From contig ADBE01000068.1 of NCBI GenBank assembly GCA_000176735.1, forward strand, positions 1 through 64,000: 64,000 nt of DNA, written 5' to 3'. Made by a program: the position numbers and the translations under genes. Below the pieces are notes generated by a model. The model saw only the letters and a program-made list of their open reading frames with translations. It was not told the origin of the DNA and did not search any database. Below, piece after piece: positions 7,398 to 59,291 of this stretch (positions are counted from its first letter, which is position 1; the number at the start of each line of letters is the position of its first letter). This stretch comes from Neisseria polysaccharea ATCC 43768 (GTDB lineage: Bacteria; Pseudomonadota; Gammaproteobacteria; Burkholderiales; Neisseriaceae).

Positions 7398-8335
7398 TCA
7401 ATTCGATGGACGGTTCGACGGGCCGGCTTCCTGTCCGGATGCCGTCTGAAGCGCGTCCTGCCCCTTGTTGAAACAGGCGGTCATTTCCGCAACCATCTCA
7501 TCCAGCATTTGGTAACGTTTGCGGTACATCGAGCGTTTTTTGCTTTCGATGTCGGCAAGGTCTTTGCGGGCGGGGGTTGGGGGGAGATGCCAGTAGCCGT
7601 CCCGTTCCAAACTTGCGCCGTATTCCTGCCAGAATGCGTCATAATTCATTTTGACGCGCTTTTTAAGTTTCCAGCGCAGTTTGACCTGATGTTTTTGTGC
7701 GATGCCTATCGCACCGTCTAATTTTAATGCGGCGGCGAAATATTGCAGTGCGGTTACCATCAGTTGTTGGGGACGCAGGCCGTGAAGTTGTTTGGTTATG
7801 CGGCGGACGGTGTCTTTGGCTTCTTCACCCGCAGGCCCTTGCACGGAGGCTGTCAGCAGGTGTGTGCCGACAAAGGCGAAAGTCGCCATATACAGCCGGC
7901 TGCCTGCTTCATCGCGCAAAGATAAAGACCACGCGCCTTCTTCGACGCAGTTGTCGTTGCGGTTGAGCCACAAGCTGATGCCGTCTGAAAGGTGCGCCAA
8001 GACCAGATGGAAGCGGTAGTCTTCCATTTGGTGCAGAATGTCTGTGCCGAACAGTTTTTCTGCCATGAGAAAATCTGCCGTCATCGCATCTAAACGGCGT
8101 TTGCAGTTAAAACGCCTGTCAACGAATTCGCGCAGCAGCGGATAGGCATTTTGCGGGCAGTGGAGGAACAGCCCCTGACGGACGGGGGAGGCGTTGACAA
8201 ACTGCTCGAAGGCGTAAATTTCTTTTTTCCGAAAAATTTCCGCAATGTGTATTTTAGATGTTGCAGCCGGTATAAAGGCGCATAGCTGTAAACGGTGCGA
8301 AAATCGGGGAAGGTAAAGGTGCGGTTCTGCTTCAT
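7398..8335 (-). pseudogene. DUF535 (VirK/YbjX family) protein, read in two frames
   Basis: The likely ATG at 8335 overlaps the gatA stop as ATGA, pointing to translational coupling. Reading from it gives [12 protein letters not shown] and LQHLKYTLRKFFGKK, the expected N-terminus, but this frame stops near 8090. The rest of the family sequence (EIYAFEQFVN to the end, about 275 residues) is in the -1 frame. The switch is at an A6 run near 8222-8227 in the codons GGA AAA AAG. One missing A explains it; so would -1 slippage, since A_AAA_AAG is an efficient bacterial slippery heptamer (as in dnaX). Joined, the product is about 312 residues. DUF535 proteins have no settled function; VirK homologues are linked to virulence and antimicrobial-peptide resistance. 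Confidence 0.75.
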
Positions 8336-9777
8336 TCGGGTCGTTTGCCGTGCCAATCGCTGTTGAGTTGGATTTGGTGCGCCGCACCGAGGATTTTGGC
8401 TTCGGAGAAATAGTTGCCGATAAGCTGAACGCCGACGGGCAGCCCGCCGCCGCTGAAACCTGCAGGCAGGGTCAATGCGGGCAGTCCGGCGAGGTTGACG
8501 GCGATGGTATAGATATCGCTCAAGTAGGTTTCAACCGGCGAAGAATCCGCTCCGATTTTTGGGGCGGCAGCGGGTGCGGTCGGCGCGAGGATGAGGTCGC
8601 ACCGTGCAAATGCCGTCTGAAAATCATCGGCAACGAGGCGGCGCAGTTTTTGGGCTTTGAGATAATAGGCATCGTAGTAGCCGTGCGACAGTACATAAGT
8701 GCCGATCATGATGCGGCGTTTGACTTCGCTGCCGAAACCTTCGGCGCGGGTTTTGCCGTACATTTCTTCCAAATCGCCGAATTGGGCGGCACGGTGTCCG
8801 TAACGAACGCCGTCGTAACGTGAAAGGTTGGTGCCGGCTTCTGCAGAGGCGAGGACGTAGTAGGCGGGAATGGACAGCTTGGTTTGCGGCAGGGAAACTT
8901 CGACCAATTCCGCGCCTTGCGCTTTCAGCAAATCAATGGTGTTTTGCAATGCCGTCCGAACATCGGTGCTGTTGCCTTCGCTGAAGTATTCTTTGGGCAG
9001 GCCGATTTTTACGCCTTTGAGCGGTTTGTCCAAATCGCGGGTGTAGTCTTCTTTTTCGCGCTCGAGGCTGGTGGAATCTTTGGGGTCGAAACCTGCCATC
9101 GCGTTTAACAGAATCGCGCAGTCTTCGGCAGTTTGCGCCATCGGGCCGGCCTGGTCGAAGCTGGAGGCGTAGGCGACCATACCGAAGCGGGAAACCGTGC
9201 CGTATGTGGGTTTGATGCCGGTAATGCCGCAGTGCGACGCGGGTTGGCGGATAGAGCCGCCGGTATCCGAACCGAGCGCGGCAGGGGCGAGGCGCGCGGC
9301 AACGACGGCGGCGGAACCGCCGGACGAACCGCCGGGTACGTGCTCAAGATTCCACGGATTTTTGGCCGCGCCGTAGAATGAGTTTTCATTGGTCGAACCC
9401 ATAGCGAACTCGTCCATATTGGTGCGGCCGAGCGTTACCATACCTTCGTCGAGTAGGTTTTGGACGACGGTGGCGGTGTAGGGGGAGATGAAGTTGTCGA
9501 GCATTTTGGAGCTGCACGCACTGCGCCAGCCGGTTTGGCAGAAAATATCCTTGTAGGCGACGGGTACGCCGGTAAGCACAGAGCCGTTGCCCTGAGCGAT
9601 GCGTTCGTCGGCGGCACGGGCTTCTGCGAGGGTTTTATCTTGGTCGATGGTGATGTAGCCGTTGAGGGTGGGATTTTTTTCAGTGATGGCGGCAAGGTAT
9701 GCGCTTGCCAGTTCGACGGCGGAAATCTGTTTGGACTGCAACAGGACGCTTGCCTGTTTCAATGTGTATTGTGTCAT
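8332..9777 (-). CDS. gatA: Asp-tRNA(Asn)/Glu-tRNA(Gln) amidotransferase subunit A
   Basis: 481 residues from ATG at 9777 ([13 protein letters not shown]); the longer open frame upstream overlaps gatC and is not coding. GatA is the amidase-signature subunit that releases ammonia from glutamine. Seen in the sequence: the catalytic Lys in VAYKDIF (near residue 77), the Ser-rich GGSSGGSAA, and the cis-Ser/nucleophile segment [12 protein letters not shown]. It is followed by the DUF535 gene with an ATGA overlap. Confidence 0.96.
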
Positions 9778-9799
9778 AAATCTTCCATCCCTAAAGGGT

Positions 9800-9828
9800 T
9801 TCAGGCGGTATTTCTGATGCCGTCTGAA
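9800..9828. other. Imperfect DUS inverted pair between gatC and gatA
   Basis: TTCAGGCGGTAT at 9800-9811 and ATGCCGTCTGAA at 9817-9828 form a hairpin with two imperfections. It lies inside the gatC-gatA operon, so it is at most an attenuator. Confidence 0.6.
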
Positions 9829-9839
9829 GCATATTCGGA

Positions 9840-10130
9840 TTATTCTTCGATAACTTGCGGTACGATGTACAGACGGTTGCGTACTTCCGGCGCGACCGCC
9901 TGATATTCGGCGGCGCGGTCGGTTTCGGTTACTTCGTCTTCGCGCAGGCGCAGGGCGGCCTCGTGCGGGTGCGCCATCGGTTCGATACCGTCTGTGTCGA
10001 TGTTTTGCATCTGTTCGACCATAGCGAAGATGTCGTTTAATTCTTGAAGCGATTTTTCTTTTTCTTCCGCAGTCAGGTGCAGTCGGGAGAGTCGGGCGAT
10101 TTTGTCTACGTCGGCAAGTGTCAGTGCCAT
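9840..10130 (-). CDS. gatC: Asp-tRNA(Asn)/Glu-tRNA(Gln) amidotransferase subunit C
   Basis: 96 residues starting at ATG 10130 ([17 protein letters not shown]). The AAGGA ribosome site 8 bases upstream supports this start over the ATG at 10139, which would overlap it. GatC is the small belt-like subunit that stabilises GatA on GatB. Landmarks: [16 protein letters not shown], then the central [19 protein letters not shown] and the tail [16 protein letters not shown]. First gene of the gatC-gatA-DUF535-gatB cluster. Confidence 0.95.
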
Positions 10131-21035: not shown

Positions 21036-22587
21036 ATGAAAAAACCTTTGATTTCGGTTGCGGCAGTATTGCTCGGCGCGGCGTTGGGTACGCCTTATTA
21101 TCTGGGTGTCAAAGCCGAAGAAAGCCTGACGCAGCAGCAAAAAATATTGCAGAAAACGGGCTTCTTGACCGTCGAATCGCACCAATATGACCGCGGCTGG
21201 TTTACCTCTACGGAAACGACGGTCATCCGTCTGAAACCCGAGTTGCTGAATAATGCGCGGAAATATCTGCCGGATAACCTGAAAACAGTGTTGGAACAGC
21301 CGGTTACGCTGGTAAACCATATCACGCACGGTCCTTTTGCCGGCGGATTCGGCACGCAGGCGCACATTGAAACCGAGTTCAAATATACGCCTGAAACGGA
21401 AAAAGTTTTGGAACGCTTTTTTGGAAAACAAGCCCCTGTTTCCCTTGCCAATACTGTTTATTTCAACGGCAGCGGCAAGATGGAAGTCAGTGTTCCCGCA
21501 TTCGATTATGAAGAACTGTCGGGCATCAGGCTGCACTGGGAAGGCCTGACGGGGAAAACGGTTTATCAAAAAGGTTTCAAAAGCTACCGCAACGGCTATG
21601 ATGCCCCTTTGTTTAAAATCAAGCTGGCAGACAAAGGCGATGCCGCGTTTGAAAAAGTGCATTTCGATTCGGAAACTTCAGACGGCATCAATCCGCTTGC
21701 TTTGGGCAGCAGCAATCTGACCTTGGAAAAATTTTCCTTAGAATGGAAAGAGGGGGTCGATTACAACGTCAAGTTAAACGAGCTGGTCAATCTCGTTACC
21801 GATTTGCAGATTGGCGCGTTTATCAATCCCAACGGCAGCATCGCACCTTCTAAAATCGAAGTCGGCAAGCTAGCTTTTTCAACCAAGACCGGGGAATCAG
21901 GATCATTTATCAACAGTGAAGGGCAGTTCCGTTTCGATACGCTGGTTTACGGCGATGAAAAATATGGCCCGCTGGATATCCATATCGCCGCCGAACATCT
22001 CGATGCTTCTGCCTTAACCGTATTGAAACGCAAGTTTGCACAAATTTCTGCCAAAAAAATGACTGAAGAACAAATCCGAAATGATTTGATTGCGGCAGTC
22101 AAAGGCGAAGCTTCCGGATTATTTACCCATGACCCGGTACTAAACATTAAAACGTTCCGTTTCACCCTGCCTCAGGGAAGAATTGATGTGGGCGGAAAAA
22201 ATCATGTTTAAAGACATGAAGAAGGAAGATTTGAACCAATTGGGACTGATGTTGAAGAAAACCGAGGCAGACATCAGAATGAGTATTCCTCAAAAAATGT
22301 TGGAAGATTTGGCGGTAAGTCAGGCAGGCAATATTTTCAGCGTCAATGCCGAAGATGAGGCGGAAGGTAGGGCAAGTCTTGACGACATCAACGAGACCTT
22401 GCGCCTGATGGTGGACAGTACGGTTCAGAGTATGGCAAGGGAAAAATATCTGACTTTGAACGGCGACCAGATTGATACTGCCATTTCTCTGAAAAACAAT
22501 CAGTTGAAATTGAACGGTAAAACGCTGCAAAACGAACCGGAGCCGGATTTTGATGAAGGCGGTATGGTTTCAGAGCCGCAGCATTAA
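21036..22587 (+). pseudogene. DUF945 (YdgA-like) protein, split by a frameshift
   Basis: The first frame (from ATG 21036) gives 391 residues with an N-terminal signal-anchor (MKKPLISVAAVLLGAALG) and the DUF945 body. It stops after GRIDVGG at 22211. The family's C-terminal part, including LNGDQIDTAISLKNNQLKLNGK, continues in another frame from about 22200 to 22587. The frames join at an A6 run (22196-22201): with five As the product would be one chain of about 516 residues, close to E. coli YdgA (about 500). YdgA-type proteins are inner-membrane-anchored periplasmic proteins of unclear role. Either a real frameshift or a sequencing error. Confidence 0.75.
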
Positions 22588-22686: not shown

Positions 22687-22793
22687 TATAGTGGATTAAA
22701 TTTAAACCAGTACGGCGTTGCCTCGCCTTGCCGTACTATTTGTACTGTCTGCGGCTTCGTCGCCTTGTCCTGATTTAAATTTAATCCACTATA
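22687..22793. repeat. Correia element, short form (107 bp), variant ends
   Basis: Bounded by TATAGTGGATTAAATTTAAA and the inverted TTTAAATTTAATCCACTATA. The terminal repeat differs from the other four copies, which read GGATTAACAAAAA, so it belongs to a different CREE end subtype. It lies between the converging DUF945 and lpdA genes. Confidence 0.9.
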
Positions 22794-22831
22794 GGCCGGA
22801 GGAAATATTTTAATCCGCTGTAAAATAGAAA

Positions 22832-22888: not shown

Positions 22889-24682
22889 TCAGTCGGATTT
22901 ATTTTTCTTTTGCGGAGGCAGGTCGGTACAAGTACCCAATGCCACTTCCGCAGCCATACCGATGGATTCGCCCAAGGTCGGGTGCGGGTGGATGGTTTTG
23001 CCGATGTCTGCCGCGTCGCAGCCCATTTCGATGGCAAGGCAGACTTCGCCGATCATATCGCCACCGTTCGGACCGACAATGCCGCCGCCGATGATGCGGC
23101 CGGTTTCGGCATCAAAAATCAGCTTGGTAAAGCCGTTGTCGCAACCGTTGGCAATCGCACGGCCGGAAGCCGCCCACGGGAAGTTGGCTTTGGTGATTTT
23201 GCGGCCGGAGGCCTTGGCGGACAATTCGGTTTCGCCCACCCACGCCACTTCGGGAGAAGTGTAGGCAACGCCCGGAATGACGCGCGCGTCGAAGTAGGCT
23301 TTGTGGCCGGCGCAGTTTTCGGCGGCAACGTGGCCTTCGTGAACGGCTTTGTGCGCCAACATCGGCTGACCGACGATATCGCCGATGGCGTAGATGTGCG
23401 GCACATTGGTACGCATTTGTTTGTCCACTTCGATGAAGCCGCGATCGGTTACGGCAACGCCTGCTTTTTCCGCGCTGATGAGTTTGCCGTTGGGCGCGCG
23501 GCCGGCGGCAACCAATACGGCATCGTAGCGTTGCGGCTCTTTCGGTGCGTTCGCGCCTTCAAAGGTAACGTAAACGCCGTCTTCTTTCGGCTCGACGGCA
23601 ACGGTTTTGGTGTTGACCATAATGTTGTCAAAACGGTATTCGTTTTGTTTTTGCCATACTTTCACCAAGTCGCGGTCCGCACCTTGCATCAGGCCGTCCA
23701 TCATTTCAACCACATCCAGACGCGAACCCAGCGTGCTGTAAACCGTACCCATCTCGAGGCCGATAATGCCGCCGCCGATAATCAGCAGTTTGCCCGGTAC
23801 TTCTTTCAGAGCCAATGCGCCGCTGGAATCGATGATGCGCGGATCTTCAGGGATAAACGGCAGTTTGGTTACGCGGCTGCCTGCTGCAATGATACAGTTT
23901 TTGAAGGCAACGATTTTTTTCTCGCCGGTAGGCGTTGCTTGTTCGTACACGTCGCCGGCAGTCAGCGATACCTCCAAGTGGTGCGGATCTAAGAATTGGC
24001 CGTCGCCTTGGATAACGTCCACTTTGCGGCCTTTCGCCATACCTGCCAAACCGCCGGTGAGGCGGGAAACCACGCCGTTTTTGTAGGCGCGCAGCATATC
24101 GATGTCGAGTTCAGGCTCGGGGTATTTGATGCCGTTTGCAGCCAAGTGGCGCACTTCGTCGATAACGGCGGCATTGTGCAACAGGGCTTTGGAAGGGATA
24201 CAGCCGACGTTCAGGCAAACGCCGCCCAAGGTTTTATAACGTTCGACGATGGCGACTTTCAAGCCTTCGTCGGCAGCGGCGAATGCGGCAGAATAACCGC
24301 CGGGGCCGCCGCCCAATACGACTACGTCGTATTCGGCATCGGCAGAGCCGCCGAATTGCGCGGTTTGCGGTGCAGGAGCGGCGGCTTTGGGTGCTTCTTG
24401 TGCCGGGGCGGCAGCCGCTTCGGCTTTAGGAGCGGCAGCCGCGCCTTCGGCTTCAACGACGACAATCAAGCCGCCTTCGGAGATTTTGTCACCGACTTTG
24501 ACTTTCACTTCTTTGACCACGCCAGCAACTTCGGCAGGTACGTCCATAGTCGCTTTATCGGTTTCCAAAGTAATCAGGGTATCGTCAACGGCGATGGTGT
24601 CGCCCACGTTTACTTCAACCGCGATAATATCTACATTTTCGTGTCCGCCAATGTCGGGCACTTTTAATTCAACTAAGCTCAT
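22889..24682 (-). CDS. lpdA: Dihydrolipoamide dehydrogenase (E3) with N-terminal lipoyl domain, P64k type
   Basis: 597 residues. Residues 1-78 form a lipoyl domain with the lipoylated Lys in [11 protein letters not shown] linker rich in Ala, Pro and Glu (about 80-110) leads to the flavoprotein: FAD motif [17 protein letters not shown], redox disulfide in [16 protein letters not shown] motif [12 protein letters not shown] and the C-terminal HPHPTLGES with the catalytic His-Glu. It reoxidises dihydrolipoate in pyruvate dehydrogenase. The fused lipoyl domain is typical of the neisserial P64k antigen. Last gene after aceE and aceF. Confidence 0.96.
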
Positions 24683-35136: not shown

Positions 35137-36932
35137 ATGCGCTATAAACCCCTTCTGCTTGCCCTGATGCTCGTTTTTTCCACGCCCGCTGTTGCCGCCC
35201 ACGACGCGGCACACAACCGTTCCGCCGAAGTGAAAAAACAGGCGAAGAACAAAAAAGAACAGCCCGAAGCGGCGGAAGGCAAAAAAGAAAAAGGCAAAAA
35301 TGCCGCAGTGAAAGATAAAAAAACAGGCAGCAAAGAGGAGGCAAAAGAGGGCAAAGAGTCCAAAAAAACCGCCAAAAACCGTAAAGAAGCAGAGAAGGAG
35401 GCAACATCCAAGCAGTCTGCGCGCAAAGGACGCGAAGAGGATAAGGAATCGAAGGCGGAACACAAAAAGGCATATGGCAAGCCTGTGTCCGAATCCAAAG
35501 AAAAAAACGCAAAAACACAGCCTGAAAACAAACAAGGCAAAAAAGAGGCAAAAGGACAGGACAATCCGCGTAAGGGCGGCAAGTCGGACAAAGACACTGT
35601 TTCTGCAAATAAAAAAGTCCGTTCCGACAAGGACGGAAAAGCAGTGAAACAGGACAAAAAACACACGGAAGAGAAAAATGCCAAAACCGATTCCGACGAA
35701 TTGAAGGCCGCCGTTGCCGCTGCCACCAATGATGTCGAAAACAAAAAATCCCTGCTCAAACAAAGCGAAGGAATGCTGCTTCATGTCAGCAATTCCCTCA
35801 AACAGCTTCAGGAAGAGCGTATCCGCCAAGAGCGTATCCGTCAGGCGCGCGGCAACCTTGCTTCTGTCAACCGCAAACAGCGCGAGGCTTGGGACAAGTT
35901 CCAAAAACTCAATACCGAGCTGAACCGTTTGAAAACGGAAGTTGCCGGTACGAAAGCGCAGATTTCCCGTTTCGTATCGGGGAACTATAAAAACAGCCAG
36001 CCGAATGCGGTTGCCCTGTTCCTGAAAAACGCCGAACCGGGTCAGAAAAACCGCTTTTTGCGTTATACGCGTTATGTAAACGCTTCCAATCGGGAAGTCG
36101 TCAAGGATTTGGAAAAACAGCAGAAGGCTTTGGCGGTACAAGAGCAGAAAATCAACAATGAGCTTGCCCGTTTGAAGAAAATTCAGGCAAACGTCCAATC
36201 ACTCCTGAAAAAACAGGGTGTAACCGATGCTGCGGAACAGACTGAGAGCCGCAGGCAAAACGCCAAAATCGCCAAAGATGCTCAAAAAATGGTGGAGCAG
36301 AAAGAAAACGAGCAGCAGCTGAATAATCTTTTGAGCAACTTGGAAAAGAAAAAAGCTGCTAACCGTATTCAAGACGCCGAAGCAAAAAGAAAACTGGCGG
36401 AAGCCAGACTGGCGGCAGCTGAAAAGGCCAGAAAAGAAAAGAAGCGGTACAGCAGAAGACTGAAGCGCGGCGTGCGGCAATGTCTAATCTGACTGCCGAA
36501 GATAAGAACATCCAAGCACCTGCAGTCATGGGTATCGGCAGTGCCAACGGTTTCGGCCGTATGCAGGGGCGATTGAAAAAACCGGTTGCCGGCGTGCCGA
36601 CGGGGCTGTTCGGGAAAAACCGCAACGGCGGCGATGTTTGGAAAGGCGTGTTCTATTCCACTGCACCGGCAACGGTTGAAAGCATTGCGGCAGGAACAGT
36701 AAGCTATGCGGACGAGTTGGACGGCTACGGCAAAGTGGTCGTAGTCGATCACGGCGAGAACTACATCAGCATTTATGCCGGTTTGAGCGAAATTTCCGTC
36801 AGCAAGGGTTATACGGTCGCGGCAGGAAGCAAAATCGGGACGAGCGGATTGTTGCCGGACGGAGAAGAGGGGCTTTACCTGCAAATACGTTATGAAGGGC
36901 AGGTATTGAACCCTTCGAGCTGGATACGTTGA
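35137..36932 (+). pseudogene. EnvC-like LytM (M23) divisome factor, split by a frameshift
   Basis: A signal peptide (1-20), then about 170 residues extremely rich in Lys/Glu, then long coiled coils (about 185-420) as in EnvC. The first frame ends at 36492 after an out-of-frame tail. The LytM domain continues in the next frame from about 36437 to 36932. One missing A in GAAAAGAAGCG near 36437 explains the break; the intact product would be about 598 residues. The LytM domain lacks metal ligands: the usual Y-x-H-L is YAGL and the H-L-H-F motif is LYLQI, so it should activate an amidase rather than cut peptidoglycan. It is followed by ctpA, the usual neighbour of envC. Confidence 0.78.
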
Positions 36933-37058: not shown

Positions 37059-38530
37059 ATGTCGAAACCTGTTTTTAAGAAAATCGCACTTTATACTCTG
37101 GGCGCAATCAGCGGCGTGGCCGTCAGTCTGGCGGTGCAGGGTTTTGCCGCCGATAAGGACGGGCGGGATAACGAAGTCCTGCCGGTCCAATCCATCCGCA
37201 CGATGGCGGAGGTTTACGGTCAGATTAAGGCAAACTACTATCAGGACAAACCCGATGCCGATTTGTTTGAAGGTGCGATGAAGGGTATGGTGGCCGGTTT
37301 GGATCCGCATTCCGAATATATGGATAAAAAAGGTTATGCGGAAATGAAGGAATCGACCAGCGGCGAATTTGGCGGCTTGGGGATGGAAATCGGGCAGGAA
37401 GACGGTTTTGTCAAAGTGGTTTCGCCGATTGAGGATACGCCTGCGGAACGGGCAGGGGTGAAAAGCGGCGACTTCATTGTGAAAATCGATAATGTTTCGA
37501 CGCGGGGGATGACGGTCAGCGAAGCGGTGAAGAAAATGCGGGGCAAGCCGGGTACGAAGATTACTTTGACGCTGTCGCGTAAAAATGCCGACAAGCCGAT
37601 AGTCGTCAACCTGACGCGTGCCATCATTAAAGTGAAAAGCGTCCGCCATCACCTGATCGAACCCGATTACGGCTATATCCGCGTGTCGCAGTTCCAAGAG
37701 AAGACGGTCGAAAGCGTCAATACCGCCGCAAAAGAGCTGGTAAAGGAAAATAAAGGAAAACCGCTCAAAGGGCTGGTGTTGGATTTGCGCGACGACCCCG
37801 GCGGGCTTTTGACCGGCGCGGTCGGCGTGTCGGCGGCATTTCTGCCGTCTGAATCGGTCGTCGTCAGCACCAAGGGACGCGACGGCAAAGACGGCATGGT
37901 ACTGAAAGCCGTTCCTGAAGATTATGTGTACGGTATGGGCGGCGATCCTTTGGCGGGCATTCCTGTCGAGTTGAAAACGATTCCGATGACGGTATTGGTC
38001 AATTCCGGTTCGGCTTCCGCGTCGGAAATTGTCGCAGGTGCATTGCAGGATCACAAACGCGCGGTCATCGTCGGTACGCAGAGCTTCGGCAAAGGTTCGG
38101 TTCAGACTTTGATTCCCTTGTCCAACGGCAGCGCGGTCAAGCTGACAACGGCGCTGTATTATACGCCGAACGACCGCTCCATTCAGGCGCAGGGGATTGT
38201 TCCCGATGTCGAGGTGAAGGATAAGGAACGCACTTTTGAAAGCCGCGAGGCGGATTTGGTCGGACACATCGGTAATCCTTTGGGCGGCGAGGATGTGAAC
38301 AGTGAAACCCTTGCTGTGCCGCTTGAAAAAGATGCGGATAAGCTCGCTGCAAAAGAAAAGGTAAAAGAAAAGGACGAGGATTTGTCTTCAAGGCGGATTC
38401 CCAACCTGCCAAAGACGAGCAGTTGCGTAAGGCTTTGGATTTAGTCAAGTCGCCAGAACAGTGGCAGAAGTCTTTGGGGCTGGCGGCGAAAAAGCCGGTT
38501 TCAAATAAAGATAAGAAAGATAAGAAGTAG
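37059..38530 (+). CDS. ctpA: Carboxy-terminal processing protease CtpA (altered C-terminal tail)
   Basis: Signal-anchor at residues 8-28, DPHSEYMDKK region, PDZ domain (GLGMEIGQEDGFVKVVSPI, about 106-180) and S41 protease domain with the catalytic Ser in NSGSASASEIVAGAL (near 320) and Lys in GTQSFGKGSVQT (near 348). The open frame stops at 38444 (461 residues). A one-base loss near 38391 (CTTCAAGG) moves it out of the frame that encodes QLRKALDLVKSPEQWQK and a Lys-rich tail ending TAG at 38530. The protease domain is intact, so the truncated form may work. Partner of the upstream envC-like gene. Confidence 0.88.
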
Positions 38531-39521: not shown

Positions 39522-41549
39522 ATGGAAGTTATCAAATATCCCGATTCCCCCTTCAAACTTCACCAGCCCTTCCCGCCCGCCGGCGACCAGCCCACCGCCA
39601 TTGCCGGCCTGCTCGAAGGGCTTTCAGACGGCCTTGCCTACCAAACCCTGCTCGGCGTAACCGGTTCGGGTAAAACCTACACCATGGCGAACGTCATCGC
39701 CCAAAGCGGCCGACCCGCCATCATCATGGCGCACAACAAAACCCTTGCCGCCCAGCTCTATGCCGAAATGCGCGAGTTTTTCCCCGAAAACGCGGTGGAA
39801 TATTTCGTCTCCTACTACGACTATTACCAGCCCGAAGCCTATGTGCCCAGCCGCGATTTGTTCATCGAAAAAGACAGCGCGATTAACGAACACATCGAGC
39901 AAATGCGTCTTTCCGCCACCAAAAACCTGATGACGCGCGACGATGTAATTATCGTCGCCACCGTGTCCGCCATTTACGGTATCGGCGACCCGACCGAGTA
40001 TCAACAAATGGTGTTGTCCGTCAAAGAAGGCGACACCATAGCCCAGCGCGACATCATCGCCACGCTCGTTTCCATGCAGTACGAACGCGGTGATTTGGAC
40101 TTCAAACGCGGCAGCTTCCGCGTGCGTGGCGACGTGATTGACGTGTACCCCGCCGAAAGCTCCGAAAACGCCTTGCGCATCAGCCTGTTTGACGACGAAA
40201 TCGACCGCCTCGATATGTTCGACCCACTTTCAGGCAGCCTGCACCAGCGCGTCGGCCGCTACACCGTCTTCCCGTCCAGCCACTATGTTACCCCGCGCGA
40301 CACCGTATTGCGTGCCTGCGAGTCCATCAAAGAAGAATTGCGCGAACGCATTGATTTCTTTACCAAAGAAAACCGCCCCGTCGAACAACAACGCATCGAA
40401 CAGCGCACCCGCTTCGACCTCGAAATGCTCTACGAAATGGGCTTCTGCAAAGGCATTGAAAACTACTCCCGCCACTTCTCCGGCAAAAAAGAAGGCGAAC
40501 CGCCGCCCACGCTGATGGACTACCTGCCCGACAACGCCATCATGTTCATCGACGAAAGCCACGTTACCGTTACCCAAATCGGCGGCATGTACAAAGGCGA
40601 CGCATCGCGCAAGCAAAACCTCGTGGACTACGGCTTCCGCCTCCCTTCCGCCCGCGACAACCGCCCGCTCAAATTCCACGAATTTGAAAAAGTCATGCCG
40701 CAAACTGTCTTCGTTTCCGCCACTCCAGCCAAATACGAAGAAGAATACGCCGGACAAGTGGTCGAACAAGTCGTCCGTCCCACAGGGCTGGTTGATCCCC
40801 AAATCATCATCCGCCCCGTCGCCACACAAGTCGACGACTTAATGAGCGAAATCAACGACCGTATCCAAAAAGGCGAACGCGTCCTCGTTACCACCCTTAC
40901 CAAACGCATGGCAGAGCAACTCACCGACTATTACAGCGAACTCGGCATCAAAGTGCGCTACCTGCACAGCGACATCGACACCGTAGAGCGCGTTGAAATT
41001 ATTAGAGATTTACGGCTCGGCCTGTTTGACGTACTCGTCGGCATCAACCTCTTGCGCGAAGGCCTCGACATCCCCGAAGTCTCCCTCGTCGCCATCCTCG
41101 ACGCCGACAAAGAAGGCTTCCTGCGCTCCCACCGCAGCCTGATTCAAACCATAGGCCGCGCCGCGCGCAACGTGAACGGCGTCGCCATCCTGTACGCCGA
41201 CAAAATCACCGATTCCATGAAAGCCGCCATCGACGAAACCGAACGCCGCCGCGAAAAACAGATTAAATTCAACGAAGAACACGGCATCGTGCCGCAGCAG
41301 ATTAAAAAACAGGTCAAAGACATCATCGACGGCGTGTACCACGAAGAAGACGGCGGCAAAAGCCGTCTGAAAGGCAAAAACAAGGTTAAAGTCGGCGAAA
41401 TCCACAATGAAGAAGATGCGATTAAAGAAATCGCCAAACTGGAAAAAGCCATGCAGCAGGCGGCTCGGGATTTGCAGTTTGAAGAAGCGGCGGTTATTCG
41501 TGATAGAATACGGAGTATTAAGGAAAGCCTGTTGTTTGGGGCGGAGTAG
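39522..41549 (+). CDS. uvrB: Excinuclease ABC subunit B
   Basis: 675 residues, normal for UvrB. It is the DNA helicase-like damage-verification subunit of nucleotide excision repair. Visible: Walker A GVTGSGKT (near residue 42), the beta-hairpin region [13 protein letters not shown] (near 92), DEXX-type IDESHVT, helicase motif [13 protein letters not shown], and the C-terminal UVR motif ([21 protein letters not shown]) that contacts UvrC. Intact. Its stop marks the left edge of an AT-rich accessory island. Confidence 0.97.
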
Positions 41550-41685
41550 AAATTAAAAATTTTAAATTGCTTCGGGATAAGTTAATCCCACTAGAAACAA
41601 CATGGGTTTACATCAATTTAATCCATTTAAACCTTGAATAAAGTATTAAATATTTGTTATTTTTAAGTAAGATTAAGAGGGTTTT

Positions 41686-43277
41686 ATGAAATTTATTAAT
41701 GAACTAAGTTTTGGTTTTCCTGATGCTGAAAATTACAAGCGAAAAGAAAATAAGGGTCTATTTAATAAAATATTTATTAAAGATGATTATTTACAAAAAA
41801 TTTTAAATCCTTCAACTTCTTTTCTTATTGGGGAAAAAGGTACTGGAAAAACAGCCTATGCCGTTTTTTTATCAAATAACCACTACAAAGATCATTTTTC
41901 CAGCTTAAAATACATACGAGAAACAGAATACAATAAATTCTTAATTTTAAAAAAAGAAAACATTTAAACTTATCAAATTATGCTAGCATATGGAAAGTAA
42001 TTTTATATTTATTAATCTCTGGCGAAATTCTAGAAAAGGAACAAACTTTATTATCTAATATTCTACAATATAGAAAGTTTTCTGCCTTAAAAGAAGCAAT
42101 AACTGACTACAATAATGGAGCATTTAATCCAGAAATAATACAAGGATTAGAATTTGTTGAGGAGGATAAAATCTCTTCTGAATTAATATTTAAACATTTA
42201 AAAGCAAAAGGTGAACTTAAAGAAGTTCAAAAATTCACAAGTACCACATTTCAGAATAATCTAAGATTTATACAGAAAAGTTTTGAAGACTCCTTAAAAC
42301 AAATTAAGCTATTCAATAATCATATATTATTTATTGATGGTATTGATATTCGCCCAGCAGATATTCCATATGAGGATTATTTACAATGTATTAAAGGATT
42401 AGCTAATGCAGTATGGGAGATAAATAATGACTTTTTTCCAAATATAAAAGGGACAAAAGGACATATGCGTATAGTTTTATTATTAAGACCAGATATTTTT
42501 GCTTCACTAGGATTGCAAAATCAAAATAATAAAATTCGTTCTAATTCAGTACTTTTAAATTGGCAAACTGACTATATTTCTCATAGAGATTCTTCTTTGT
42601 TTAAGTTATTAGATCACATGTTAAGTATCCAACAGAACACTTCAATTTCTTTTGGAGAATCTTGGGATTATTATTTTCCATGGAATGCACCAAGTACTAG
42701 TGATTACCCATATCCAACAACATCGTTTATTAGTTTTTTAAGATGGTCATATCACAGACCCCGTGATATTCTAACTTTCTTAGATATATTAAAAGAAAAT
42801 AATAAATTAACACAGAAAGAATTTTTCTCTATTAAAGATTTTGAAGATCCTAGCACAATAAGAGAATATTCTATTTATTTATTAGGCGAAATAAAAGATC
42901 AATTATCTTTCTATTTTAGCGATAAAGATTATGAAATATTCTTAAAATTTTTTGAATATTTAAATGGAAATAATAGGTTTGACTATAAGGATTTTCAGAT
43001 TGCATTTAAAAAATATGAGCAATATGTTGAAACCATTACTCCCAACAAACCCTCTTTTATGGAAGCAGAAAATGTTTTTTTACAATTTTTATTTGAACTT
43101 AATGTAATATGCTATAAAGAGTATATAGAAAATAGCAATAAACCTCATATTCATTTTTGTTTTAAAGACAGGAATTATGCAAATATATCTCCTAAAATCA
43201 AAACTAACTGTAATTATGAAATTTTTTATGGCTTAGCCAAGGCGTTAAACATAGGAGCTAAATTTGAATCCCCATAA
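41686..43277 (+). pseudogene. P-loop ATPase, Sll1717-like, frameshifted at an A7 run
   Basis: ATG 41686 has AAGAGGG upstream. The first frame gives 93 residues with Walker A LIGEKGTGKTAYA (residues 46-58) and stops at 41967. The remaining ~440 residues run in the -1 frame from about 41950 to 43277: HILFIDGIDIRPADI (Walker B-like), GLANAVWEIN and RIVLLLRPDIFASLGLQNQNNK, matching the Sll1717 group of P-loop ATPases. The switch is at A7 (41949-41955): eight As would restore one ~530-residue chain, and A_AAA_AAA in the reading frame is also slippery. The gene is very AT-rich, has an N. mucosa-type DUS hairpin downstream and looks imported. A defence role is possible but not shown. Confidence 0.7.
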
Positions 43278-43307
43278 GCAAGCGTAACCTGCGTAGAGCA
43301 AGCAAGC

Positions 43308-43375
43308 GTAGGTTGAGTCAAGACCCAACAAAACTGTTAAATTTCACAAAATGTTGGGTTTGCAACCCAACCTAC
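43308..43375. repeat. GTAG-headed palindrome pair (REPIN-like)
   Basis: GTAGGTTGAGTCAAGACCCAAC (43308-43329) and the inverted GTTGGGTTTGCAACCCAACCTAC (43353-43375) are two hairpins headed by GTAG and facing each other. This is the layout of REPINs, doublets of REP sequences mobilised by RAYT transposases. Confidence 0.6.
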
Positions 43376-43401
43376 ATTTTGCTCAAGTAGCACATAATAA
43401 A

Positions 43402-43443
43402 AAGGTCGTCTGAAAACTGTGAATCCGTTTTCAGATGACCTTT
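43402..43443. terminator. N. mucosa-dialect DUS hairpin
   Basis: AGGTCGTCTGAA (43403-43414) is the published AG-mucDUS. It pairs with TTCAGATGACCT (43430-43441, one mismatch) and is followed by T-rich sequence, forming a terminator downstream of the ATPase gene. The dialect differs from the host's. Confidence 0.7.
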
Positions 43444-43883
43444 GTTTCATTCCAAACAACAAATATAGTAAATTAAAATCAAAATAGCAAGCCGTAGCCT
43501 GAGACCTTTGCAAAATTCCCCAAAATCCCCTAAATTCTCACCAAGACATTTAGGGGATTTCTCATGAGCACCTTCTTCCGGCAAACCGCACAAGCCATGA
43601 TTGCCAAACACATCGACCGCTTCCCACTATTGAAGTTGGACCAGGTGATTGATTGGCAGCCGATCGAACAATACCTGAATCGTCAAAAAAACCGTTACCT
43701 TCGAGACCACCGCAGCCGTCTCGCCTATCCCCTGTTGTCCATGTTCAAAGCCGTCCTGCTCGGACAATGGCACAGCCTCTCCGATCCCGAACTCGAACAC
43801 AGCCTCATCACCCGCATCGATTTCAACCTGTTTTGCCGTTTTGACGAACTGAGACCTTTGTTTCATTCCAAGCAACGAATATA
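43437..43883. mobile_element. IS5-type insertion sequence remnant with flanking 31-bp direct repeats
   Basis: GAGACCTTTGCAAAATTCCC at 43501 is the terminal-repeat type of the neisserial IS1106-like IS5 group. The transposase starts at ATG 43564 and reads about 96 residues (MSTFFRQTAQAMIAKHID to FCRFDEL) before breaking at about 43851, where another GAGACCTTTG begins. The C-terminal two thirds, with most catalytic residues, are gone. The remnant is flanked by imperfect direct repeats at 43437-43467 and 43853-43883 (29 of 31 identical), the second joined at the break. Confidence 0.75.
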
Positions 43884-45574: not shown

Positions 45575-46108
45575 ATGAATCAGAACAGGGATCTTCGTTT
45601 TGCAAAGCAGTTTGGAGATTTTGCTGAGTCTTTAGTAATGTATGTTTTAGGTCTAAATAATTGGTCAGTTGCGCTAATTGATCATGTTGGTGCTGATGTT
45701 TTGGCGATAAGCAGAGAAAAACCATGTAAGAGGATAGTTATATCGGTAAAAGGAAGAAATTTCCCAGAGACAGAAAGCAAATCATTTGATTTTGATAGGA
45801 ATAATATAAATAAATTAAAAGACACAGCCGAGCTTTTAGATATGGCTCCCGCAGTTTCTTTTGTATTTGTTGATACTTCAGAAAAATTAAGGAAAATCAG
45901 ATTGATAATGACTGAGTTATCAGAGTTGGAACGTCTGGCTGAAGATAAGGCTATTGATTTTATAAACTATAATAGTAAGCAAGGTATTCAAATAAAATTT
46001 ACTCAAACTAAAAGAGTAAATCATTTGTGTGCAATAAAAGAAACTCCTAGTATTTTTTATACGGAACTAACATTTAATGTTGAGGGCGTGTTTTCTCAAA
46101 AGACATAA
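45575..46108 (+). CDS. Uncharacterised protein with possible PD-(D/E)XK motif
   Basis: 177 residues, AT-rich, not assigned to a named family. After a short helix (FAKQFGDFAESLVMYVLGL) there is HVGADVLAISREKPCKRIVISVKGRNF (residues ~37-63), with an Asp and a VxVK strand that resemble a PD-(D/E)XK nuclease core. The second acidic residue is ambiguous. The C-terminal part is helix then strand. A ribosome site AAAGGAGC lies upstream. It could be a restriction-type or mobile-element nuclease; this is a guess from fold features. Confidence 0.5.
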   Translation: MNQNRDLRFAKQFGDFAESLVMYVLGLNNWSVALIDHVGADVLAISREKPCKRIVISVKGRNFPETESKSFDFDRNNINKLKDTAELLDMAPAVSFVFVDTSEKLRKIRLIMTELSELERLAEDKAIDFINYNSKQGIQIKFTQTKRVNHLCAIKETPSIFYTELTFNVEGVFSQKT

Positions 46109-58700: not shown

Positions 58701-59291
58701 AGGTTGTGCGTTTCGGGGACGGCTAAAGCGGTTTCCTTATCTGCATGAATGGCGATGTCCCAAACGTTCATTTCCGTAAAGGTTTTGGCTGTTCCTTTTC
58801 TTCCCCGTATTTTCCGGCGATCAGCCGCAAACTTCCTGCACCTTCGGGAATCGCCGCAACGGGAATGGCGGCTTTGGCAAGGTGTAGGTAGCGGGGCGGA
58901 GTGTTCTTGTATCGGGGGGCAGATTGACCCCAAGCTGTACCATTTCAAAAAGCCCGCCTGTTTTGTTGAAGCGTTTGGAATGGAATTCTTCATGGATGAT
59001 GCCCGAATCGGCAGTCATCCATTGCACGCCGCCTCCGCCGCTTGAGTCACGGTGTACGGCTTCGCCGCGATAGGCGATGGTTACGGTTTCAAAATCTTTG
59101 TGGGGGGGGGAGACACCTCGGGAGGTGCGGTTCGGATTGGGTGCAAATTCATAAGGTACGGCATAGTCGAGCATTAAAAACGGATTCGTTCCCTTGTCGT
59201 CGCCCATGTAGGAAAACAGAGACCGGACAGGGAAGCCGTCGCCTACCCGGTGTTGCCTGTCGGTACGGTAGATTTGTCTGACATTTCTCAT
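58700..59291 (-). pseudogene. Pirin family protein, disrupted
   Basis: The first frame gives MRNVRQIYRTDRQHRVGDGF, FLMLDYAVPYEFAPN and VQWMTADSGIIHEEFHS, the pirin N-terminal cupin. A C9 run (plus-strand G9 at 59102-59110) lies where most pirins have GVSEHPHRGFETV. Beyond SKRF..GLFEMVQLGVNL the frame is lost. NTPPRY, AIPVAAIPEGAGSL and then GTAKTFTEMNVWDIAIHADK are read in other frames, needing at least two further indels. The chain ends at LAVPETHN against the adhesin remnant. Pirins are cupin-type metal-binding proteins with regulatory or oxygenase roles. Confidence 0.75.
59102..59110 (-). repeat. Poly-C (C9) tract inside the pirin gene
   Basis: Nine Gs on the plus strand equal nine Cs in the coding strand, in frame here (Ser-Pro-Pro-His). 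Poly-C tracts of this length in neisserial coding regions are the usual substrate of slipped-strand phase variation. Confidence 0.7.

What the first reader, a model, noticed from the sequence alone, without database searches (positions are those of the whole stretch)
41686..43277. Sll1717-type P-loop ATPase interrupted at an A7 run: phase switch, frameshifting or decay
Everything outside one base is intact: Walker A in the first 93 residues and about 440 further residues in the -1 frame with no other stop. The break is at A7, inside A_AAA_AAA in the reading frame. That is compatible with slipped-strand phase variation (A8 = on) or with -1 slippage making both a short and a long product. A switchable ATPase in an island with immunity-type genes is a candidate defence gene.
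Basis: partly seen in the sequence, partly recalled or inferred. Interest (0 to 1): 0.65.

Follow-up and report, generated by a model that had tools for sequence, protein, structure and literature searches.

The report
Broken-looking phage-exclusion ATPase in Neisseria
What seems to be a harmless throat Neisseria carries a relative of the phage P2 gene that blocks phage T5; the gene looks broken at one base, but that break is more likely a reading error in an old draft genome, or simple decay, than an on/off switch.

Summary
The break is in the sequence: ORF1 (41686-41967, 93 aa, Walker A) and a second frame (439 aa from 41958) match consecutive parts of NCBIfam's Sll1717 ATPase model. Both halves are 58-59% identical, colinear, to phage P2 Fun(Z), whose record says the cloned gene blocks T5. 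The switch reading is not supported. Relatives put the frame change between residues 91 and 92, just 3' of A7. A7 is what the codon composition predicts; P2 fun carries an A8, and the 13 full-length E. coli records (4 distinct proteins) are intact. No frameshift-stimulating hairpin was predicted. The same window has private one-base homopolymer indels in four core genes (DUF945, lipoamide dehydrogenase, EnvC-like, S41 peptidase), each in frame in the five relatives compared. The genome is probably Neisseria polysaccharea (amylosucrase 623/624 identical to the solved enzyme), whose ATCC strain was sequenced with 454 plus Illumina. Best reading: a Fun-type gene in a variable slot after uvrB, probably intact in the organism and mis-sequenced. 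A real recent lesion is the main rival; phase variation is unlikely but not excluded.

The parts
41686..41967 (+). 5' part of the Fun/Sll1717-type ATPase gene (93 aa ORF; Walker A at 41830-41853)
   Evidence: 58% identical to P2 Fun(Z) 4-91
41956..41960 (+). place where the two reading frames meet (E91 codon in frame 1, residue 92 codon in frame 2); single net frame change
41949..41955 (+).
41958..43277 (+). 3' part of the ATPase gene (439 aa and stop; Walker B FIDGID)
39522..41549 (+). uvrB, conserved 5' flank of the variable slot
   Evidence: named by recognition
41550..43296 (.). slot content (26% GC gene), not found in the other 45 genus genomes; in G022 (L057) only 27 bases lie between the uvrB match and the repeat that follows
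43297..43467 (.). repeat stretch shared, whole or in part, with the same slot in L053, L055, L057, L062, L063
43957..44505 (+). SUKH (SMI1/KNR4) immunity-type gene, neighbour
   Evidence: PF09346 E 1.2e-8; the same DNA also follows the slot in L053, L059, L062
22200..22206 (+). private one-base indel in an A run inside a DUF945 gene (control for assembly quality)
   Evidence: (halves match DUF945 222-356 and 362-458)
22906..22911 (-). private one-base indel at the 3' end of a lipoamide dehydrogenase gene (stop lost, last residues altered)
36426..36441 (+). private one-base indel splitting an EnvC-like M23 peptidase gene
38405..38407 (+). private one-base indel in a C run near the end of an S41 C-terminal processing peptidase gene

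Best explanation
This is a horizontally acquired, stand-alone phage-exclusion ATPase of the P2 Fun(Z) / Sll1717 kind, sitting in a variable slot behind uvrB, probably in Neisseria polysaccharea. The apparent interruption is one net base, most probably a homopolymer error of a 454-based draft assembly, so the cell probably has the intact ~530-residue protein. How it works: shown - a P-loop ATPase with Walker A and B, and an AAA+-type fold in the predicted model of a relative (L004) that is 94% identical to P2 Fun; recorded by others - P2 fun blocks T5 and causes FUdR sensitivity; inferred - an ATP-driven sensor that acts during infection by a foreign phage and stops its DNA replication or the cell, without a partner gene.
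For: Family and colinearity with P2 Fun; 75 of 78 residues invariant in 18 relatives are kept across the two halves. Stand-alone: in the part that was shown, no neighbour recurs among the chromosomal loci except an ABC-type ATPase match between L006 and L013; some viral loci share phage neighbours. Slot: uvrB matches in 45 of 46 genus genomes (own included), the gene in 1 of 46, the own one; among 20 fetched loci the contents vary, some with AbiLi-like, DUF4917/PDC-S21 or HEPN genes. Error: four core genes of the same window carry private one-base homopolymer indels, while 5 of 5 relatives compared keep the frame at each site. Amylosucrase 623/624 identical to solved entries 3ueq/1g5a (that these are the N. 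polysaccharea enzyme is recalled); the enzyme's gene was cloned from ATCC 43768 (passage), a strain sequenced with Roche 454 Titanium plus Illumina, assembled with Newbler and Velvet (passages). G000 has 139 contigs, and 4 of 5 other contigs sampled are 557-1731 bases long.
Against: No reads were seen. The raw count of private non-triplet indels, intergenic ones included, is not highest here (window 6, one of them 11 bases long; G009 14, G020 5, G039 2, G015 2, G005 1). In two other compared stretches of this genome (window 1 to about 21900, 16.7 kb covered; contig C10, 13.8 kb covered) the private indels listed (3 and 2) were not placed in core genes, but I examined only one of the five closely (C10 1072). 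By the table, taking events with 3 or more reference ORFs beyond the first tenth of the ORF, there are 2 here, 1 in G015, 0 in the other four; four more in G009 lie mainly near ORF starts and were set aside; the DUF945 and lipoamide dehydrogenase cases were added by hand, so like cases in relatives may be uncounted. That the assembly is ATCC 43768 is inferred, and Illumina data may have corrected 454 errors. 3 of 13 relatives are also broken, so real decay may happen in this family.
Confidence: 0.55

Rival explanations
1. A real, recent inactivating indel: the acquired Fun-type gene is decaying in this strain. The 93-residue product has Walker A but neither Walker B nor the C-terminal part, and the second frame has no ATG/GTG/TTG before 42465, so the gene is off.
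For: One lesion only, the rest conserved; 3 of 13 relatives carry other lesions: L005 after the start codon, L007 and L014 in-frame stops; the gene is a low-GC newcomer found in 1 of 46 genus genomes.
Against: Four core genes of the window have the same kind of lesion, which fits sequencing error better; 11 of 11 viral copies and 13 of 13 full-length E. coli records (12 strains, 4 distinct proteins) are intact.
Confidence: 0.32
2. Slipped-strand phase variation at the A-rich tract.
For: A run of seven adjoins the break; Neisseria uses simple repeats for phase variation (general knowledge; opa repeats in a passage of PMC2911385); another NF047389 gene in the genus (G004, L019) is split at an A9 run in a one-contig genome.
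Against: Relatives place the break 3' of A7; A7 is expected from codon content, and the gene's two T7 runs are not broken; P2 fun has an A8, and the 13 full-length E. coli records keep 528 aa.
Confidence: 0.08
3. Programmed -1 ribosomal frameshifting or transcriptional slippage at A_AAA_AAA makes a long product.
For: The heptamer is in the right register in ORF1.
Against: No unusually stable downstream hairpin (z -0.06; pseudoknots not covered); the product would lack the acidic residue found in 16 of 18 relatives; 10 of 13 genome relatives, 11 of 11 viral and 13 of 13 E. coli copies are read in one frame.
Confidence: 0.05

Closest known systems
Phage P2 Fun(Z) (AF063097, 528 aa)
   Same: 58% identity over residues 4-91 and 59% over 92-523, colinear; its 94% relative L004 falls in the same NCBIfam family; stand-alone, low GC
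   Different: P2 fun lies among tail genes of the phage; here a chromosomal slot behind uvrB and one frame break; no phage phenotype tested
NCBIfam NF047389, P-loop ATPase Sll1717 family
   Same: both halves match consecutive model parts, half 2 above the cut-off
   Different: the frame break; the other five Neisseria members above cut-off are too distant to match the halves at blastp E 1e-3
Neisserial minimal mobile elements (exchange of gene cassettes; concept from passages of PMC2649163)
   Same: varying genes behind a conserved uvrB in 20 loci; a version without the ATPase in G022
   Different: the 3' flank is itself variable; whether this slot is in the published list was not established (one paper looked for was not held)

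Membership tests
Sll1717 P-loop ATPase (NF047389) | score above curated cut-off of 75 bits | tested here: met
   half 2 156.6 bits; half 1 50.9 bits (alone below); consecutive model positions
Sll1717 P-loop ATPase (NF047389) | Walker A and Walker B | tested here: met
   GEKGTGKT in ORF1, FIDGID in frame 2; motif names recalled
P2 Fun(Z) homologues | full-length colinear similarity to Fun(Z) | tested here: met
P2 Fun(Z) homologues | blocks T5 growth / FUdR sensitivity | not testable with these tools
   known here only from the P2 record note; T5 immunity also in a PMC8987985 passage
P2 Fun(Z) homologues | open reading frame | tested here: not met
   in this assembly one net frame change at 41956-41960
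Phase-variable (contingency) gene | repeat tract longer than composition predicts | tested here: not met
Phase-variable (contingency) gene | tract length varies between reads or strains | not testable with these tools
   only one of 46 genus genomes has a DNA match
Programmed -1 frameshift gene | in-register slippery heptamer | tested here: met
   A_AAA_AAA at 41949-41955
Programmed -1 frameshift gene | stimulatory downstream structure | tested here: not met
   100 nt from 41957: -9.3 kcal/mol, z -0.06; pseudoknots not covered
Programmed -1 frameshift gene | frameshift conserved in relatives | tested here: not met
   10 of 13, 11 of 11 and 13 of 13 relatives in one frame
AAA+ ATPase of the Orc/Cdc6 - TnsC - STAND type | fold | tested here: inconclusive
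   AF2 model of L004 (pLDDT 81.4): Z 12.5 SSO1545, 11.9 Orc1/Cdc6, 11.8 TnsC, 10.0 RdrA, but p97 (10.3) and proteasome ATPases (10.2) score nearly as high; best Foldseek E about 1e-3
Neisserial minimal mobile element | different cassettes between the same conserved flanking genes | tested here: inconclusive
   5' flank in 45 of 46 genomes; the trmB side follows in 5 of the 20 loci fetched (L049, L051, L056, L058, L061)

The most novel reading that the evidence does not exclude
Fun/Sll1717-type phage-exclusion ATPases in Neisseria are switched on and off by slippage in A-rich tracts: of six genus members above the family cut-off, two (the window gene and the distant G004 copy with A9) are frame-broken in or beside such tracts, so defence would be a contingency trait.
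Probability: 0.07. Interest if true: 0.55.

Novelty: new member of a known kind. Interest (0 to 1): 0.2.

Why it matters
It ties an uncharacterised neisserial gene to P2 Fun(Z), a T5-exclusion gene whose mechanism I found no account of in the passages read, and points to the place behind uvrB as a slot where Neisseria carry varying, partly defence-type genes. It is also a caution: single-base breaks in 454-era drafts should be checked against core genes of the same contig before being called switches.

Tried and rejected
Other strains: a DNA search of 46 Neisseria genomes found no second copy, so tract length could not be compared within the species. The NF047389 search of 83 Neisseriaceae gave 20 genomes with a match at E 0.001, 6 of them above cut-off; the five others above cut-off do not match the window halves. 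A protein search of 369 genomes of the class at E 1e-20 found only the window's own genome. Plasmids: 7 records, best 41% identity (Lactococcus). Three further E. coli genomes match 8% of L004 at 73% and were not followed. PDB by sequence: no match for A2 up to E 1. PADLOC: no good model for the gene halves or for L004. The DS41/DS8 anti-phage models of NCBIfam hit ORF1 only, far below cut-off; a paper search for DS41 gave one paper, on CRISPR in Lacticaseibacillus, not read. A search for Sll1717 listed 20 of 186 papers, none of the 20 holding that word. PMC8987985, PMC9519451, PMC9122126, PMC2911385, PMC3541776, PMC6949346, PMC2649163 and PMC12373910 were seen only as the passages returned by find; the last had nothing on fun. 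Other papers were seen as search listings only.

I first thought that the alignment excluded A7; the wider set (R and K each once among 18 relatives) shows that it only makes A7 less likely.

Full report
What is there. ORF1 (41686-41967) encodes 93 residues with a Walker A motif; a second frame runs on for 439 residues from 41958 to 43277 with no other stop. The halves match positions 1-70 and 84-454 of one NCBIfam model, the Sll1717 P-loop ATPases. The gene is 26% GC, against about 53-57% in the 500-base windows within uvrB.

What it is related to. Thirteen relatives were found in one scan of species genomes (43-60% identity) and eleven in viral contigs. The Atlantibacter relative (L004) is 94% identical to Fun(Z) of phage P2, whose record states 'cloned gene blocks growth of T5; nonessential; lysogenic conversion; confers sensitivity to FUdR'. 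The window halves are 58% and 59% identical to Fun(Z) over residues 4-91 and 92-523. [quoted passage not shown] another passage puts fun in a second defence-enriched locus of P2-like phages (PMC9519451). In E. coli, 16 of 5426 genomes match L004 DNA, 13 of them over the full length. All 13 records (12 strains, one of them assembled twice; 4 distinct protein accessions) are annotated as unbroken genes of 1587 bases.

Where the break is. Most relatives read L-K-x-E-K-H-L here. Frame 1 matches them through E91 and frame 2 takes over at residue 92, so the frames meet just 3' of A7. Position 91 is E in 13, D in 3, R in 1 and K in 1 of 18 full-length relatives, so a shift inside A7 would need an unusual ancestor but cannot be ruled out.

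Is A7 special? No. The gene has three A/T runs of seven; codon shuffles give a mean of 4.0, and a second set that ignored the frame change 2.3. P2 fun has an A8. The RNA downstream folds no better than its shuffles (z -0.06).

Is the assembly sound? The window was compared with five Neisseria genomes. Four core genes carry private one-base homopolymer indels: DUF945 at 22200 (its halves match DUF945 222-356 and 362-458), lipoamide dehydrogenase at 22906 (stop lost), an EnvC-like M23 peptidase at about 36434, and an S41 peptidase at 38405. At three of the sites a frame is open across the place in 5 of 5 relatives and none in the window; at the fourth the 5 relatives share one C-terminus and the window has another. 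Two relatives have a 6-base-shorter form at the EnvC site. Against this: raw private non-triplet indels, intergenic included, number 6 for the window (one of 11 bases) and 14, 5, 2, 2 and 1 for G009, G020, G039, G015 and G005. From the table, with 3 or more reference ORFs and beyond the first tenth of the ORF, I count 2 for the window, 1 for G015 and 0 for the rest, four start-proximal G009 events set aside. Two further stretches of this genome gave 3 and 2 private indels that I did not place in core genes and mostly did not examine. The excess is thus in coding homopolymers and rests on few events.

Which organism. The ATGCCGTCTGAA uptake sequence dominates the window (50 copies). The genome's amylosucrase matches solved entries 3ueq/1g5a at 623 of 624 aligned residues, counted from the printed alignment; that these are the N. 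polysaccharea enzyme is recalled. That enzyme's gene was cloned from N. polysaccharea ATCC 43768 (PMC6949346 passage), and ATCC 43768 was among strains sequenced with Roche 454 Titanium and Illumina and assembled with Newbler and Velvet (PMC2911385 passages). That G000 is this assembly is an inference.

Setting. uvrB DNA is found in 45 of 46 Neisseria genomes, own included, the ATPase gene in one, the own one. In 20 fetched loci (one only 1524 bases long) the DNA behind uvrB varies, though some pairs share a gene, such as L049/L051 and L054/L055. In G022 the ATPase is absent and 27 bases separate the uvrB match from the repeat. Of 41 slot or near-slot proteins listed I scanned ten with Pfam and nine of these with PADLOC. 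Hits include an AbiLi-like ATPase (E 3.5e-29) with a weak AbiLii-like partner (E 4e-4) in G002, a DUF4917/PDC-S21 protein in G041, a RiboL-PSP-HEPN protein in G036 (Pfam only) and KilA-N in G020 (Pfam only). Pfam gave nothing for three of the ten, and PADLOC nothing for six of the nine. So the slot takes defence-type cargo among other things.

How it may work. The model of L004 (pLDDT 81.4) resembles AAA+ ATPases: SSO1545 (Z 12.5), Orc1/Cdc6 (11.9), TnsC (11.8), plant and animal STAND proteins (9.9-10.8) and RdrA (10.0), with p97 (10.3) and proteasome ATPases (10.2) close behind, so the branch within AAA+ is not settled; Foldseek E-values are only about 1e-3 at best. A single-protein ATP-driven sensor or switch is the inference; what it senses is unknown. 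The FUdR effect of P2 fun hints at a link to thymidylate starvation or DNA synthesis, which is a guess.

Verdict. A Fun(Z)-type phage-exclusion gene, new only as a neisserial member. The interruption is most likely a draft-assembly error (0.55), next a real lesion (0.32), with phase variation (0.08) and recoding (0.05) as outsiders.

Noticed in passing
L019 (G004:C1:1951203-1952593): A distant Sll1717-family gene in another Neisseria (one-contig genome) is split at an A9 run; a better phase-variation candidate than the window gene, though an A9 is not rare for its codons (P 0.36).
   Followed up: partly
L005 5727-5740; L007 6049-6051; L014 near 6641: Three of 13 fun homologues are broken differently: frame lost in an A8 just after ATG, in-frame TAA, in-frame stop.
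   Followed up: partly
window 59102-59110: G9 tract inside an apparently open minus-strand frame that resembles a pirin (recognised by eye, not searched); possible phase-variable tract.
   Followed up: no
window 22687-22794: About 107-base repeat with many near-identical copies in each of six Neisseria genomes searched, probably a Correia element (recalled).
   Followed up: no
L013 5728-9584: In a Nitrospinales MAG a fun homologue lies directly upstream of a uvrB-like gene (by eye); in the window it lies directly downstream of uvrB.
   Followed up: no
window 45575-46108: 177-residue ORF with only a sub-threshold Pfam hit, also present between uvrB and trmB in L051; looks like a nuclease-fold protein by eye only.
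   Followed up: no
L067 (G002) 8174-9948: AbiLi-like ATPase with a weak AbiLii-like partner directly behind uvrB.
   Followed up: partly
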